Below are positions 27,650 through 33,493 of a DNA stretch of 64,000 nucleotides, in pieces. The notes beneath the pieces are model-generated. The model made no database searches. It was not told the DNA's origin and saw only the letters and a program-made list of their open reading frames with translations. Made by a program: the position numbers and the translations under genes. Source of the DNA: Psychrobacter sp. NG25 (GTDB taxonomy: Bacteria > Pseudomonadota > Gammaproteobacteria > Pseudomonadales > Moraxellaceae); assembly GCF_015234355.1 (NCBI RefSeq), contig NZ_JADGMV010000002.1, positions 434,001 through 498,000 on the forward strand, read 5' to 3'. Within the stretch, counting starts at the first letter, position 1, and each line of letters opens with the position of its first letter.

Positions 27650-28564
27650 ATGATGCGTATTGGATTATTTTTATTAACCAACTTAGCAGTGATTGTGGTA
27701 TTTAGCATTGTGTTCGGTATATTGTCGAGGTTTTTTGGGATTGGTAGTGTGCATACAGCAGGTGGGCTGAACTATGTCAGCCTTGCCATTATGTGTGGTA
27801 TCTACGGTATGGTTGGCTCGATGGTGTCACTATTTCTGTCAAAGTGGATGGCCAAAAGATCAACGGGTACGGTGGTGATAGAATCTCCACGCAACGCTAC
27901 TGAGCAATGGCTGGTCGATACGGTAGCCAAACAAGCACGGGCGGTAAATATCGGCATGCCTGAGGTTGGTATTTTTAATAATTCGCAGCCAAACGCCTTT
28001 GCGACTGGTTGGAATAAGAATAAAGCGCTAGTGGCAGTATCGTCTGGCCTACTACAGAATATGAATCAAGATGAAGTCGAGGCGGTATTGGCGCATGAGA
28101 TTGGTCATGTGGCCAATGGCGATATGATCACGCTTGCTCTCATTCAAGGCGTGGTGAATGCTTTTGTGATGTTCTTTGCACGTATTATCGGCAGTTTCGT
28201 TGACCGTACTGTGTTCAAAAACACCAGTGGTCGCCCAGGTATTGGTTATTTCATTACCAGTATTGTGATGGACATTTTGCTTGGGTTTTTGGCATCTGCC
28301 ATCGTCATGTGGTTCTCACGCTTACGTGAATTCCGTGCGGATCAAATGGGCGCAAAACTTGCCAGCCGTGAAAAAATGATCAGTGCGCTTGATGCCTTGC
28401 GTCCTTCTGCACAGCGTCCCGACCAAATGCCAGAGAGTATGAAAGCGTTTGCAATCTCGTCTGGGCAAACTCAAGGCTTTAGTATTGCAAACCTATTCCG
28501 CTCGCACCCAACGCTTGATGACCGTATTGCGGCATTGAGAGCGTATAATCCTAGTGAAGCGTAA
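27650..28564 (+). CDS. htpX: HtpX, membrane-bound M48 zinc protease
   Basis: This 304-residue inner-membrane protease of quality control has two N-terminal membrane helices (about 5-25 and 40-60), the zinc motif HEIGH within [13 protein letters not shown], further helices, and the downstream Glu in [16 protein letters not shown]. The end [16 protein letters not shown] is typical. AGGAAG about 7 bases before the tandem ATGs at 27650 and 27653 supports the start. Confidence 0.96.
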
Positions 28565-28779
28565 TAGAAAAATCTTCAAATACTGCAGACATGATCTTTA
28601 GATTGAACCGATTGTCTATAGATTATGCTGCAATGTGCGCTTATCTGACGCAGAAAGTGCACCCTACTAAATTACAATATAATAATGATTAGCTAGAATC
28701 ATATTAAACAACTTCACATATTGGTTTGGTCAACACACAATCTGTTAGATATATTTTATAGATAACTACTTGAAATATT

Positions 28780-29394
28780 TTAGTAAAAAGATACATCTTT
28801 ATCTGGGTCATCACATATTTTTTGTAAATTTATTCTTCCTATTGTTTTCCTGTCTGTGTAATAACTACCTGAAAGTTCATAACTTTTACCTTCCTCTGTT
28901 TCTATAACTCTTATGTCAAATAGTGTTGAACCATTATACGAAGACCAGCTCGGATTTTTAGGAGTTGAACGATATACGTAGTATAACTTTTTTTGGCCTT
29001 GTTCTATTGTTGGGGTTGTTTCTATAGTAATTGATTTTGTTGTTTCACCATGCATATCAATCTGGGTTGCTAATAGTGATTGACGAATCACAGCTTTAAC
29101 TACGAGAGCTCTGTTATTCTCAAGGATCACTTCCCCTTCCCATGTTCCATTTAAATCAGGAAACATTGATTTATTAAAATAAGTAAGAAAAGCCCACAAC
29201 TTTCTAGCAAAGAATGATTTTAATAAAATAATCATTATAAAAGTACTTACAATAGTGGATATAGTGATTACTAATGTCAATGGAACATCTGAAAGAAAAT
29301 AGGTTCTTATTAAGAAATAAACCCCTATACTCATTACAGTAGTAGCCGAAACTACATATCTAAGAATAAGATCAAACCTTACAATTCTGAACAA
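28780..29394 (-). CDS. Cap15-like 2TM beta-rich effector (Panoptes OptE-like)
   Basis: This is a 204-residue protein with two N-terminal membrane helices (about 9-33 and 37-61), then a beta-rich domain (about 75-200) starting PDLNGTWEGEV and ending LSGSYYTDRKTIGRINL. This matches the 2TM plus beta-barrel architecture of Cap15, a CBASS effector, and of the OptE effectors paired with mCpol. These proteins sense a cyclic nucleotide through the barrel and damage the membrane. It starts with TTG at 29394, 8 bases after GGAG of a GAGGAG site that overlaps the stop of the mCpol gene. Composition is very AT-rich. Family recognised by pattern; effector role is inference. Confidence 0.8.
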   Translation of the reverse strand: MFRIVRFDLILRYVVSATTVMSIGVYFLIRTYFLSDVPLTLVITISTIVSTFIMIILLKSFFARKLWAFLTYFNKSMFPDLNGTWEGEVILENNRALVVKAVIRQSLLATQIDMHGETTKSITIETTPTIEQGQKKLYYVYRSTPKNPSWSSYNGSTLFDIRVIETEEGKSYELSGSYYTDRKTIGRINLQKICDDPDKDVSFY

Positions 29395-29406
29395 TTTTTT
29401 TGCTCC

Positions 29407-29784
29407 TCATAGGCCCAGCTTTGCATAATTGTGTAAACAATTTTTTCCATTAGACTTAGCTGACATCAATGCTATATAGGCTTCGCTAAGACTTGTGCCT
29501 ATCCCAGCAGAAAAAGTCATATTATTGGGTGCTAGAATTTGTATTTCATGATATACAGCTTCCAAGCTAATATCTAACTCTGTGGATGCTACGACTCCAT
29601 CAGCAGCACAAAATATGATATCAAAACCATAATTTTGGAGTTCAGTGGCTATCTTTTTCGTAAACTCATATAGTGATTGGCTTATATTGATAAGCTCTTG
29701 ACGATTGTTGCTTAAATAGCAAGAAGTAATTTTTCTACCTATATCATCACCATCAATTGAAATATAATTCAAAATAAATCTCAT
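29407..29784 (-). CDS. mCpol, minimal Cas10-like nucleotide polymerase (Panoptes OptS-like)
   Basis: This is a 125-residue single palm domain. From the ATG at 29784, the first catalytic motif is YISIDGDDIG (D11, D13, D14). The strand-turn motif is IIFCAADGV with Asp62 where GGDD/GGDE stands in Cas10 or GGDEF proteins, and the third block is FSAGIGTSLSEAYIAL plus AKSNGKN. This is the minimal CRISPR polymerase (mCpol) pattern; in Panoptes systems it makes a cyclic nucleotide that keeps the effector silent. The frame extends 8 codons further up; neither start has a clear ribosome site. No CRISPR array or other cas gene is in the window. It is 12 bases upstream of its effector. Confidence 0.82.
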   Translation of the reverse strand: MRFILNYISIDGDDIGRKITSCYLSNNRQELINISQSLYEFTKKIATELQNYGFDIIFCAADGVVASTELDISLEAVYHEIQILAPNNMTFSAGIGTSLSEAYIALMSAKSNGKNCLHNYAKLGL

Positions 29785-29834
29785 CCGATAAATCACAAAG
29801 GTTAGCATGGATATATTGATAGCAGCATAACAAT

Positions 29835-29858
29835 TTATATTTATATTTATATTTATAT
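29835..29858. repeat. (TTATAT)4 microsatellite in the mCpol promoter region
   Basis: Four perfect TTATAT units plus a partial fifth end about 50 bases before the mCpol start. On the minus strand they read ATATAA/TATAAA, which resembles the -10 element, so a change in copy number could shift or alter the promoter. Confidence 0.75.
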
Positions 29859-29967
29859 TTTATAGTTCAAATTAAGATATTATCATTAGTCTTGATAGTA
29901 AGAAACATCACCTCAACTAAGATACACAGCAGAATTGTATTCATGTTAAACGATAAAAAACTAGCCG

Positions 29968-30046
29968 AAAAAAGCCGACATAACTCAATTAAAGTCAGAT
30001 AAGCCCTTTCGAACAGTTATTACGACTAACTAGATACCAAACCTCA
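29968..30046 (-). repeat. Decayed duplicate of the carboxynorspermidine synthase 3' end and terminator
   Basis: The stretch 30006-30046 (CTTTCGAACAGTTATTACGA...) matches 32195-32234 with only a few mismatches and one indel. The preceding AAAAAAGCC...ACTCAATTAAAGTCAG also resembles the terminator at 32153-32198, but its stem is broken here. It includes the position of the stop codon of the gene ending at 32219. Confidence 0.7.
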
Positions 30047-30142
30047 TTCATCATAATCGATGCTTGATGACTATATTAAAATGTAGTTTATCTATGATTT
30101 TAATCATGCATGAGGATTTGATTATTTGAAAATATGCCTTAG

Positions 30143-31864
30143 CTACTTCTCTTTTTTAGACGGAAAAAGCGATATCAAACCATCCCCTATTATTCCTCGC
30201 CAAGAAAAATAATCATGCCCTGCACCATATTCTTGATAATGCGCCTCATACCCTTTTGCTAATAACACATCACGCAGATGACGATTGGTTCCCAATATAC
30301 CGTTGCTACTACTATTACCACGAGCCGTTTCAAACACGCCAGCACTCAAAAAGAAACGAACGGGCACTTTATCCATTTTTATGACTTCAGACGCTACAAA
30401 ATGTTTATCAGTTTCACTCTGATCTTCTGGTTTCCACCAAAAAGAACCAGACATAGAGATAACATTGCCAAATATATCAGGATGACGTAGCGCAATGGTT
30501 GTTGCAGCCAATCCGCCATAGCTCGACCCTGCAATGATAGTTCTATCCTTCGGTATCGTTATTGGCAGTTGTTTATTAATTTGCGGTACCAGCTCATTAG
30601 CCAATACATCTGCAAATACAGGGTTGGCAGGTAATTCACGCGCACGAGCATCACCATCAGGATTACTGATAAATACCGCCGTCACAGGTGGAATCTCACC
30701 TGCTGCAATTAAATTATCTAATATCGTTGGCAATCCAACCGTATCGATATATGACTCGGCATCAAATATATACAGCAACACCGCATCGTCTCTATTATTC
30801 TGGCTGTCATCAATAGCAGGAGAATAGATAGTGATGTCTCGGGTATTATCTAATGTGCTACTGGTGAATTTAAAAGTAGAAAGCTCGCCTTTGGGGGTTT
30901 CTTTTTGCACATCTAGCCAAGGATTTTTTGGTGCATCTTTTAACGTAATAGTAGATTTGGTTGTGTATTTGTCGATTGCTGAATGAGGCCATGGATGATG
31001 GTTATAAGGATCTGCCTGAGCCACAGCTTTTATGGCAATTCTACGGGCACGCCCAGACAATGGTAGCTGAGGCACATTGGGCGCTATTTGATAAGACAGA
31101 TGGGTATTTTTTGGCACAATAAAGCTTTTGTACCATGTATCAGAGTCCGCCAATCGTTGCAATGCATCATGATTATTGGACGGGCCACCCATTAGCTTGA
31201 TATTACGATAGTCGCCTCGCGCCAAAAACGTCATCAAGGTGCCCGAAGGTATCTCTTCTATAAGCGGCGTACCTAATGCTTCTACATCTGCCCAAAAACT
31301 ATCAGTACTCTCACCCTTTTGCAGTGATTCACGTAATGCAGATACTTTTGGGCTGAGTAACGTATCAGAACTTTCTAAATTACTTTGTAAATGATTTTCT
31401 AAAGAGCCTTCTAAATCCTGTTCCGCTAAACTGACACGTTGTTCGAGCACTATCTGATATGCACCTGCGCCCGACAGTCGCCATATCTCTGCGCAGTTTT
31501 CGGCCACTGAATAGAACTTTTGCTTGCCGCTTTCATGGTCAATCAAACGGCGCGATATTTCTCCTTTGGCATCGATAATATCCATCGTCATCGTATTATC
31601 ACCACTGTCAACATATCCGGTCAGATAGTCACCCTTGTCACAGGGAACGTTGATGTCTAATGACTTATGCTGTGGCTTAGACTGTGACTGAGTGTATGGC
31701 TTGATATTATTCTCGCTGTTGGAATAACTTAGCTCACCTTTCATAGGACTTCCCACTTTTAACACTGCTGTCTCCGAACCAAATGCCGAAAATGATGTCG
31801 AATATATCAAACAAGTAAATCCTGCTATCGCCCATTTATTAGAGAAAAAACGTGTGTATGTCAT
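30143..31864 (-). CDS. Exported Fes/IroE-type siderophore esterase
   Basis: This 573-residue protein has a signal peptide ending near SAFG. Parts in order: a small pre-domain (about 35-140), a Fes-type N domain (about 175-285, with IPSGTLMTFLARGDYRNIKL), and an alpha/beta-hydrolase domain (about 320-570). The nucleophile motif is IIAGSSYGGLAA and the catalytic His lies in GAGHDYFSWR. Related enzymes hydrolyse ferric catecholate siderophore esters. A near-consensus Fur box lies about 195 bases upstream and a MITE sits between. There are no siderophore biosynthesis or receptor genes nearby, so it may serve xenosiderophores. Periplasmic location rather than cytoplasmic Fes points to an IroE-like role. 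Confidence 0.85.
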   Translation of the reverse strand: MTYTRFFSNKWAIAGFTCLIYSTSFSAFGSETAVLKVGSPMKGELSYSNSENNIKPYTQSQSKPQHKSLDINVPCDKGDYLTGYVDSGDNTMTMDIIDAKGEISRRLIDHESGKQKFYSVAENCAEIWRLSGAGAYQIVLEQRVSLAEQDLEGSLENHLQSNLESSDTLLSPKVSALRESLQKGESTDSFWADVEALGTPLIEEIPSGTLMTFLARGDYRNIKLMGGPSNNHDALQRLADSDTWYKSFIVPKNTHLSYQIAPNVPQLPLSGRARRIAIKAVAQADPYNHHPWPHSAIDKYTTKSTITLKDAPKNPWLDVQKETPKGELSTFKFTSSTLDNTRDITIYSPAIDDSQNNRDDAVLLYIFDAESYIDTVGLPTILDNLIAAGEIPPVTAVFISNPDGDARARELPANPVFADVLANELVPQINKQLPITIPKDRTIIAGSSYGGLAATTIALRHPDIFGNVISMSGSFWWKPEDQSETDKHFVASEVIKMDKVPVRFFLSAGVFETARGNSSSNGILGTNRHLRDVLLAKGYEAHYQEYGAGHDYFSWRGIIGDGLISLFPSKKEK

Positions 31865-32152: not shown

Positions 32153-32198
32153 AAACAAAAAAAGCCCCTCTGACTCAATAGTGAGTCAGAGGGGCTTT
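32153..32198 (-). terminator. Strong terminator after carboxynorspermidine synthase
   Basis: A 17-bp perfect stem (32161-32177 with 32182-32198; AAAGCCCCTCTGACTCA) with an ATAG loop is followed on the minus strand by a T-tract (32160-32153). Confidence 0.95.
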
Positions 32199-32218
32199 CG
32201 AACAGATATTACGACTAA

Positions 32219-33493
32219 CTAGATATCAAACTCAAGTGCTCTATCGCCATTCTCGTCTTTGATACGAGTTGGCAAACCAATCTTATTCAACAGGTTGATA
32301 AGTGGCTTGGCATCAAGCTCTTCGACGTTGACCATCTTGCCTGCGTCCCATTCACCGGTAGCAATAAGCATGGCAGCCGCGACAGGTGGCACGCCCGCAG
32401 TATAAGAAATACCTTGGCTACCCATGGCTTCAAAGGCCTCTTTGTGATCAGAGACGTTGTAGATAAATACTTCGCTATCCACGCCATCTATCTTGCCTTT
32501 AACCTTGTCACCGATACAAGTCTTGCCTGTATATTCTGCTGCTAAAGAGCTTGGATCTGGTAGTACGGCTTTTACCACTTTTAGTGGAATGACTTCTTGC
32601 CCTTCAGCGGTCATAACAGGCTGCTCAGACAACAAGCCTAGGCTTTGAAGCACAGTAAAGACATTGATATAGTGCTCACCGAAACCCATCCAAAAGCGAA
32701 TGTTTGGCACATTCAAGTTGGCTGATAATGAGTGAATCTCATCATGTCCGCTTAGATAGCTGTTTTGCATACCAACCACAGGCAGATCATCCGTACGCTT
32801 CACTTCAAACATTTTGTTTGACTGCCACTTACGATCTTGCCAAGAGTAAACCGTACCCGTAAATTCACGGAAATTAATCTCGGGATCAAAGTTAGTGGCG
32901 AAATATTTGCCATGGCTACCAGCATTGATATCGATAATATCGATGTCTGTGACCGAGCCTGCATCCATCATGTCATAGCCAAGACGCGCATAAGCGTTGA
33001 CCATACCAGGATCGAATCCTGCACCTAAGATAGCGGTGATTTTATTGTCCGCACAGCGCTGCTTACGCTTCCACTCATAGTTGTTATACCATGGCGGCGT
33101 CTCACAGATCTTACGAGGATCTTCGTGAATAGCCGTATCAATATAAGCAACTTCCGTTTCGATACAAGCTTCTAGCACACTCATATTCAAAAAAGGTGAG
33201 CCAACGTTGATGACGATTTGGATGCCTGTGTCTTTTATCAGCTGTATTAGCGCAGGGATATCCATGGCATCGATTTGGTGCGTATGCAAAGTCGCTGGCT
33301 GCTTAAAGCTGCCTTTTTCTTGCACACTTTGGGCGATGGCATCACACTTATCTACCGTGCGCGACGCAATATGAATATTGCCAAGCACGTCATTATGCAT
33401 CGCACATTTATGCGCAACCACTTGAGCGACACCGCCTGCTCCAATGATGAGCACGTCTTTTTTGTTGGTTGTAGCTTGTTGGTTTGTGTTCAA
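32219..33493 (-). CDS. Carboxynorspermidine synthase (saccharopine dehydrogenase family)
   Basis: This 424-residue NAD(P)H-dependent enzyme condenses aspartate semialdehyde with a diamine to carboxynorspermidine or carboxyspermidine. It starts with a Rossmann motif (LIIGAGGVAQVVAHKC) and has the family blocks IHIASRTVDKC, GAGFDPGMVNAYARL, DINAGSHGKYFATNFDPEINFRE and GVPPVAAAMLIATG. The next-upstream gene in the same direction is the matching decarboxylase, which supports this role over saccharopine or lysine metabolism. AAAGGAGG is a strong ribosome site. The 5' leader carries a long hairpin (33611-33648). Confidence 0.9.
   Translation of the reverse strand: MNTNQQATTNKKDVLIIGAGGVAQVVAHKCAMHNDVLGNIHIASRTVDKCDAIAQSVQEKGSFKQPATLHTHQIDAMDIPALIQLIKDTGIQIVINVGSPFLNMSVLEACIETEVAYIDTAIHEDPRKICETPPWYNNYEWKRKQRCADNKITAILGAGFDPGMVNAYARLGYDMMDAGSVTDIDIIDINAGSHGKYFATNFDPEINFREFTGTVYSWQDRKWQSNKMFEVKRTDDLPVVGMQNSYLSGHDEIHSLSANLNVPNIRFWMGFGEHYINVFTVLQSLGLLSEQPVMTAEGQEVIPLKVVKAVLPDPSSLAAEYTGKTCIGDKVKGKIDGVDSEVFIYNVSDHKEAFEAMGSQGISYTAGVPPVAAAMLIATGEWDAGKMVNVEELDAKPLINLLNKIGLPTRIKDENGDRALEFDI

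What the first reader, a model, noticed from the sequence alone, without database searches (positions are those of the whole stretch)
29835..29858. Hexamer microsatellite at the promoter of the mCpol gene
Four perfect TTATAT units plus a partial fifth end about 50 bases upstream of the mCpol start, the expected promoter position. On the coding strand they resemble -10 elements. Slippage could change spacing or expression, giving phase-variable defence. If effector silencing depends on constant polymerase activity, dosage would matter.
Basis: partly seen in the sequence, partly recalled or inferred. Interest (0 to 1): 0.6.

Follow-up and report, generated by a model that had tools for sequence, protein, structure and literature searches.

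The report
AT-rich repeat before Panoptes operon
A real but short repeated DNA stretch sits just in front of a two-gene anti-phage system; it looks like an ordinary AT-rich promoter or leader feature, and whether its length ever changes to tune the defence is untested.

Summary
In detail: a perfect period-6 run of 28 bases (29833-29860, 4.7 units) ends 48 bases before the best-supported mCpol start. It exceeds every simulation and is the longest period-6 run on its 652-kb contig, which has very few microsatellites. mCpol and the next gene form a two-gene Panoptes operon, alone in a variable slot between conserved genes.

The best-scoring coding-strand -10 (TAAAAT, 29862-29857) overlaps the tract's upstream edge. 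On that model the tract begins the leader, so slippage would change leader length in 6-base steps, not promoter spacing. That promoter match is no better than background, and the opposite strand scores as well. No other genome searched carries this locus, so copy-number variation could not be tested. Seventeen other mCpol upstream regions lack such a repeat, while the same hexamer occurs, in either orientation, before unrelated genes.

Best reading: a sporadic slippage-born AT tract in a promoter or leader. Graded tuning of Panoptes remains possible but unproven: the layout resembles Haemophilus hmw1A P2, and published data show that raising Panoptes expression weakens defence.

The parts
29833..29860 (-). 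Perfect hexamer tract; TATAAA repeats on the mCpol coding strand, 4.67 units
29407..29784 (-). mCpol (OptS) gene, start ATG 29784; an upstream in-frame ATG lies at 29808
   Evidence: PF18182 E 2.3e-28; alignment with three Acinetobacter-genus homologues, 46-49% identity
28780..29394 (-). 2TM-beta / Cap15-like effector (OptE) gene, TTG start preceded by GAGGAG eight bases upstream (read by eye)
   Evidence: PF18153 E 1e-22; PADLOC 2TM effector models, best E 1.1e-21; alignment
29857..29862 (-). Best-scoring -10-like hexamer TAAAAT on the coding strand, overlapping the upstream edge of the tract (prediction only)
   Evidence: score no better than window background
29881..29886 (-). Weak -35-like hexamer ATGATA, spacer 18 (prediction only)
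29964..29979 (-). Weak terminator-like site upstream of the operon, would separate it from the esterase gene (prediction only)
   Evidence: 1 found, shuffles mean 0.4
28566..30143 (.). Variable slot between an HtpX-like M48 peptidase gene and an esterase gene; holds the Panoptes operon here, other genes or almost nothing in relatives

Best explanation
The tract is a sporadic, slippage-born AT-rich microsatellite in the promoter or 5' leader of a stand-alone Panoptes (mCpol + 2TM-beta) operon. Most likely RNA polymerase uses a -10 at or just above the tract's upstream edge, so that the tract forms the easily melted start region and the first, unstructured A/U-rich part of the leader of mCpol, a gene without a clear Shine-Dalgarno sequence. 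A change in unit number would lengthen or shorten the leader by six bases without moving -10 against -35, so any effect would be mild and graded and would act on both genes of the operon. Shown: tract, position, operon identity, low duplex stability, weakly folded predicted leader. Inferred: promoter position, transcription start, any effect on expression.
For: Tract and position. Top coding-strand promoter-like pair ATGATA-18-TAAAAT ends inside the tract. The tract is among the weakest-paired DNA of the window (rank 5 of 63,973; the weakest stretch starts 3 bases away). Leader folds less than 188 of 200 shuffles. Same hexamer found sporadically in the genus, 24-base form in 2 of 105 genomes and 18-base form in 8 of 105, in 6 of these 8 loci within about 125 bp before a frame start, three in each orientation; upstream of a trxB-like gene it is present in G072 and absent from its two best-matching relatives.
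Against: The promoter match is ordinary: 5 found against 5.2 in shuffles, 43% of 300-base strips score as well, and the opposite strand scores the same 7.1. No transcription start is known. A 28-base perfect tract on a contig so poor in microsatellites could mean selection for it.
Confidence: 0.55

Rival explanations
1. The tract is a contingency locus: its unit number changes often by slippage and tunes Panoptes expression, hence how easily the effector is released on infection. It would work like Haemophilus hmw1A promoter P2, whose -10 includes bases of the first repeat and whose repeats lie in the 5' UTR.
For: Perfect tract, longest period-6 run of the contig; -10 candidate overlaps the first repeat, as in hmw1A P2 (passages of PMC8262952); repeats upstream of genes vary in number in Moraxella catarrhalis, same family (passages of PMC7302503); Panoptes output depends on dosage.
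Against: No second allele seen. Only 4.7 units, against 13-24 in the hmw1A constructs quoted. In G072 the same hexamer precedes a trxB-like housekeeping gene in the other orientation. None of 17 other mCpol upstream regions has a run over 10 bases.
Confidence: 0.12
2. The tract is part of a binding region for an H-NS-type silencer that keeps a horizontally acquired, AT-rich operon low; low expression would suit Panoptes, where more expression means less defence.
For: The own genome encodes one H-NS family protein (PF00816, E 6.4e-18). The operon and its upstream region are 66-72% A+T against 58% for the window. Found in 1 of 105 genus genomes, so probably acquired. That H-NS favours flexible A+T-rich DNA with TpA steps is recalled.
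Against: No binding data; any AT-rich stretch would fit; no specific motif was tested.
Confidence: 0.15
3. The tract is neutral: a chance slippage product in AT-rich non-coding DNA, with no effect on expression.
For: Sporadic occurrence of the hexamer in the genus, in both orientations. The next-longest repeats of the contig also lie away from clear gene starts: the octamer run between frames, the 20-base hexamer run at the 3' end of a frame, the heptamer run over a 68-aa TTG-started frame only.
Against: It lies within the about 130 bp where promoter and leader must be if the upstream terminator-like site works.
Confidence: 0.18

Closest known systems
Panoptes (optSE; mCpol + 2TM-beta), PMC12657218 and PMC12657230 (passages seen)
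   Same: Two-gene operon, synthase first, effector second; both domains match by profile and by alignment with other such pairs.
   Different: No repeat at the promoter is mentioned in the passages seen. No SMODS-domain cyclase (CBASS) was found in this genome, whereas the paper reports significant co-occurrence.
Haemophilus influenzae hmw1A promoter P2 with heptamer repeats, PMC8262952 (passages seen)
   Same: -10 box includes bases of the first repeat and repeats lie in the 5' UTR, as predicted here.
   Different: There repeats are many, vary among isolates and are shown to lower expression; here 4.7 hexamers and no variation or expression data.
Moraxella catarrhalis uspA2 AGAT repeats and glutathione disulfide reductase GACTGTTT repeats, PMC7302503 (passages seen)
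   Same: Short tandem repeats upstream of a gene in the same bacterial family.
   Different: Different units; numbers shown to differ among strains (for example 2 to 17 for GACTGTTT).
Neisseria meningitidis nadA promoter repeats, PMC2791445 (abstract and outline seen)
   Same: Repeat number in an upstream region tunes expression.
   Different: Works through spacing of NadR operators; no regulator or operator is known here.

Membership tests
Panoptes anti-phage system | mCpol-domain synthase gene | tested here: met
   PF18182 E 2.3e-28, 99.3 bits against cut-off 26.4
Panoptes anti-phage system | Adjacent effector with 2TM and Cap15-like receptor domain | tested here: met
   PF18153 E 1e-22, PADLOC 2TM effector models, 12-base gap between the genes
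Panoptes anti-phage system | Conserved residues of the mCpol domain kept | tested here: met
   IDGDDIG and FCAADGV identical in 4 of 4 aligned sequences; catalytic role not tested
Panoptes anti-phage system | Constitutive cyclic nucleotide synthesis that restrains the effector; anti-phage activity | not testable with these tools
   needs bench work
Phase-variable simple-sequence-repeat promoter | Perfect short tandem repeat beyond chance in a promoter or leader | tested here: met
   promoter or leader position inferred from distance
Phase-variable simple-sequence-repeat promoter | Copy number varies between isolates or within a culture, reversibly | not testable with these tools
   locus in 1 of 105 genus genomes, one genome per species, no reads
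Phase-variable simple-sequence-repeat promoter | Repeat number changes promoter spacing | tested here: not met
   tract longer than any usable spacer; best -10 at its upstream edge; rests on predictions
Phase-variable simple-sequence-repeat promoter | Repeat number changes expression by another route (leader, regulator spacing) | not testable with these tools
   needs reporter fusions

The most novel reading that the evidence does not exclude
Repeat number at this promoter reversibly tunes expression of a Panoptes guard system, so that a population holds cells with different trip thresholds for phage nucleotide sponges: a contingency locus acting on a defence system through its inhibitory signal rather than on a surface protein or a methylase.
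Probability: 0.1. Interest if true: 0.65.

Novelty: new member of a known kind. Interest (0 to 1): 0.27.

Why it matters
Published work shows that stronger Panoptes expression weakens defence (PMC12657230). A length-variable tract at its promoter would be a simple way to set the trip threshold differently from cell to cell. As it stands, the finding mainly adds a stand-alone Panoptes operon in a small variable slot, with an unusual but unproven AT repeat in front.

Tried and rejected
Rejected: a promoter-spacing switch (tract longer than any usable spacer). A known structured RNA in the leader (no Rfam match at gathering score in 28500-30300; leader less folded than 188 of 200 shuffles). The repeat as a shared Panoptes feature (no perfect tandem run over 10 bases with 2.5 or more copies and period up to 12 in 17 other 300-base upstream stretches). 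The repeat brought in with a known homologous upstream region (the 184-base upstream region matched, in 15 of 347 other family genomes, only short pieces of 21-58 bases that overlap the tract; only 2 candidates per genome were scored). The repeat as cassette boundary (homology to relatives ends at about 28550-28628 and resumes at about 30144-30164 or 32215).

Led nowhere: scan of genome contigs with the single mCpol protein (no relative), DNA search of plasmids (none), phage protein search (none). The plasmid protein search gave one distant relative in Sulfitobacter. The class-wide PF18182 search matched 3 of 369 genomes including the own; the two others have open frames of 322 and 641 aa. A literature search for repeats, phase variability and Psychrobacter together found nothing.

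Limits: start codons of the other loci were picked by a simple rule; L117, L118 and L120 are partial or uncertain, L122 was left out, L112 and L113 are the same contigs as L060 and L062, and L119-L121 are virus-collection contigs. In one search I aligned 21 of 30 delivered trxB loci (105 genomes matched) and judged the tract by eye. The reversed control is a rotation of the same repeat, so not independent; it also marks further genomes (G057, G077, G092) with related runs. The microsatellite count covers 1 of 28 contigs, 652,687 of 3,387,899 bases. In one search only 2 candidates per genome were scored. The promoter matrix uses E. coli frequencies recalled from memory.

Full report
What is there. 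The family is Moraxellaceae by inference: contigs of two family members equal in length named Acinetobacter records. The genus is probably Psychrobacter, which is my guess and comes from no call. On the coding (minus) strand it reads as TATAAA repeats.

More than chance? Yes. Sixty simulations at each of Markov orders 0, 1, 2 and 4 gave perfect period-6 runs of at most 19 bases. On the whole contig the tract is the longest period-6 run (next 20 bases). Among periods 1 to 9 only one run is longer, a heptamer run of 36 bases, and twelve simulations of the contig gave at most 19 for period 6. The contig has few microsatellites: no homopolymer over 9 and no dinucleotide run over 11 bases. The octamer run lies between frames, the second hexamer run at the 3' end of a 325-aa frame, and the heptamer run over a 68-aa TTG-started frame only.

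The genes. mCpol (29407-29784, minus) matches PF18182 at E 2.3e-28, and the next gene (28780-29394, minus) matches PF18153, the Cap15 receptor domain, at E 1e-22 and PADLOC 2TM effectors. This is Panoptes. The homologues begin close to the methionine at 29784 rather than the upstream ATG at 29808, so the tract ends 48 bases before the start. By eye, mCpol has no Shine-Dalgarno sequence before ATG 29784, whereas the effector's TTG start has GAGGAG eight bases upstream. The own genome has no SMODS-domain match.

The slot. I compared 12 stretches from related genomes. Homology to the window stops at 28550-28574 (once at 28628), just after the HtpX-like gene. In 10 of the 12 it resumes: in 6 at 30144-30164, the end of the esterase gene, and in 4 at 32215, the end of the next gene, which reads like a saccharopine dehydrogenase (my reading). 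In G083 and G093 no right flank was found. The space is 68-167 bp in G066, G086, G058 and G084 and holds unrelated genes in six others, among them a PADLOC candidate PDC-S19 protein in G015 and an Mrr-type nuclease domain in G048; four of the other five proteins scanned matched nothing in Pfam or PADLOC, and one matched only a marginal PADLOC model. mCpol by protein search occurs in 1 of 105 genus genomes. In the family 11 of 348 genomes match PF18182 and 7 exceed the cut-off, but only four (G000, G119, G145, G173) have open frames of stand-alone length (126-150 aa); the other seven have 616-714 aa.

Promoter. The consensus scan of 29380-30150 gave 5 promoter-like pairs where shuffles give 5.2; the one at the tract on the coding strand is ATGATA-18-TAAAAT, -10 at 29862-29857. 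A weight-matrix scan ranked the same pair first on the coding strand with 7.1, but 43% of 300-base strips of the window score as well and the opposite strand also reaches 7.1, with a -35 hexamer overlapping the tract's edge. The best unit inside the tract (TATAAA 29845-29840) scores 5.4, with spacer 19. The tract is longer than the spacers allowed (15-20), so no pair can straddle it. If the top pair is used, transcription starts at about 29850, inside the tract, and adding or removing a unit changes leader length, not -35/-10 spacing. The predicted leader is weakly folded (-6.7 kcal/mol against a shuffle mean of -10.75), and the tract is among the weakest-paired DNA of the window (rank 5 of 63,973). 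The leader model rests on these and is inference.

Relatives of the tract. The 24-base form occurs in 2 of 105 genus genomes: here and upstream of a trxB-like gene in G072, in the opposite orientation to its gene. Of 21 trxB upstream regions aligned, only that of G072 has it; the two best-matching relatives (85%) lack it. An 18-base form occurs in 8 of 105 genomes. In six of these eight loci it lies within about 125 bp before a frame start (mCpol, trxB-like, an 83-aa frame, TauE-like, gltS-like, fabI-like; names other than mCpol are my reading of the translations), three with TATAAA and three with TTTATA on the coding strand. In G004 and G077 it does not. This looks like sporadic slippage in AT-rich upstream DNA without strand preference. 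Of 17 other mCpol-like loci none has a tandem run over 10 bases in the 300 bases upstream. The closest relative (67%, a gammaproteobacterial MAG, L106) has its mCpol 12 bases behind another gene.

Against known cases. A first repeat that overlaps the -10, with the repeats in the 5' UTR, is the layout of hmw1A P2, where more repeats lower expression (PMC8262952, passages). In Moraxella catarrhalis repeats upstream of uspA2 and of a glutathione disulfide reductase gene differ in number among strains (PMC7302503, passages). In nadA repeats change operator spacing (PMC2791445, abstract). These have proven variation; this one has none. [quoted passage not shown] 4), and OptE alone inhibits colony formation (PMC12657218, passage). 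Both genes share the operon, so a weaker promoter would lower synthase and effector together. Two searches of the paper library for Panoptes or mCpol listed two papers on this system, with no occurrence of 'phase variation' in either; the listings were capped and the library holds open-licence papers only.

Verdict. Observation confirmed; the proposed mechanism (spacing change, phase-variable defence) is not shown. The best reading is an AT-rich slippage tract at the promoter or start of the leader. H-NS silencing and a neutral tract are live rivals, and reversible graded tuning remains open at about one in ten.

Noticed in passing
28566-30143 in the window; L047-L056, L058, L059: The space between an HtpX-like gene and the esterase / saccharopine-dehydrogenase-like genes is a variable slot in the genus: Panoptes here, a PDC-S19 candidate in G015, an Mrr-type nuclease in G048, unknown genes in others, 68-167 bp in four.
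   Followed up: partly
29969-30042 and 32158-32231: A 74-base stretch upstream of the operon is 79% alike to the 3' end region of the gene at 32219-33493, as if the cassette had once sat next to that gene before the esterase gene came between them.
   Followed up: partly
whole genome G000: No SMODS-domain (CBASS cyclase) match in the genome, so this Panoptes operon seems to lack the CBASS partner often found with it; other cyclase families were not tested.
   Followed up: no
L124 8314-8349 (contig C12 28314-28349): The longest short-period repeat of the contig is a 36-base CAGTAAG run, over a 68-aa TTG-started frame only.
   Followed up: no
L106 85-4006 and L061 51-3983: In the closest mCpol relative and in G173 the mCpol-effector pair follows genes that read like an E1-type and a JAB-type protein (my reading of the translations), as in type II CBASS neighbourhoods.
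   Followed up: no
L046 1500-1556 (G072): The same hexamer has expanded just before a trxB-like gene in one species only.
   Followed up: partly
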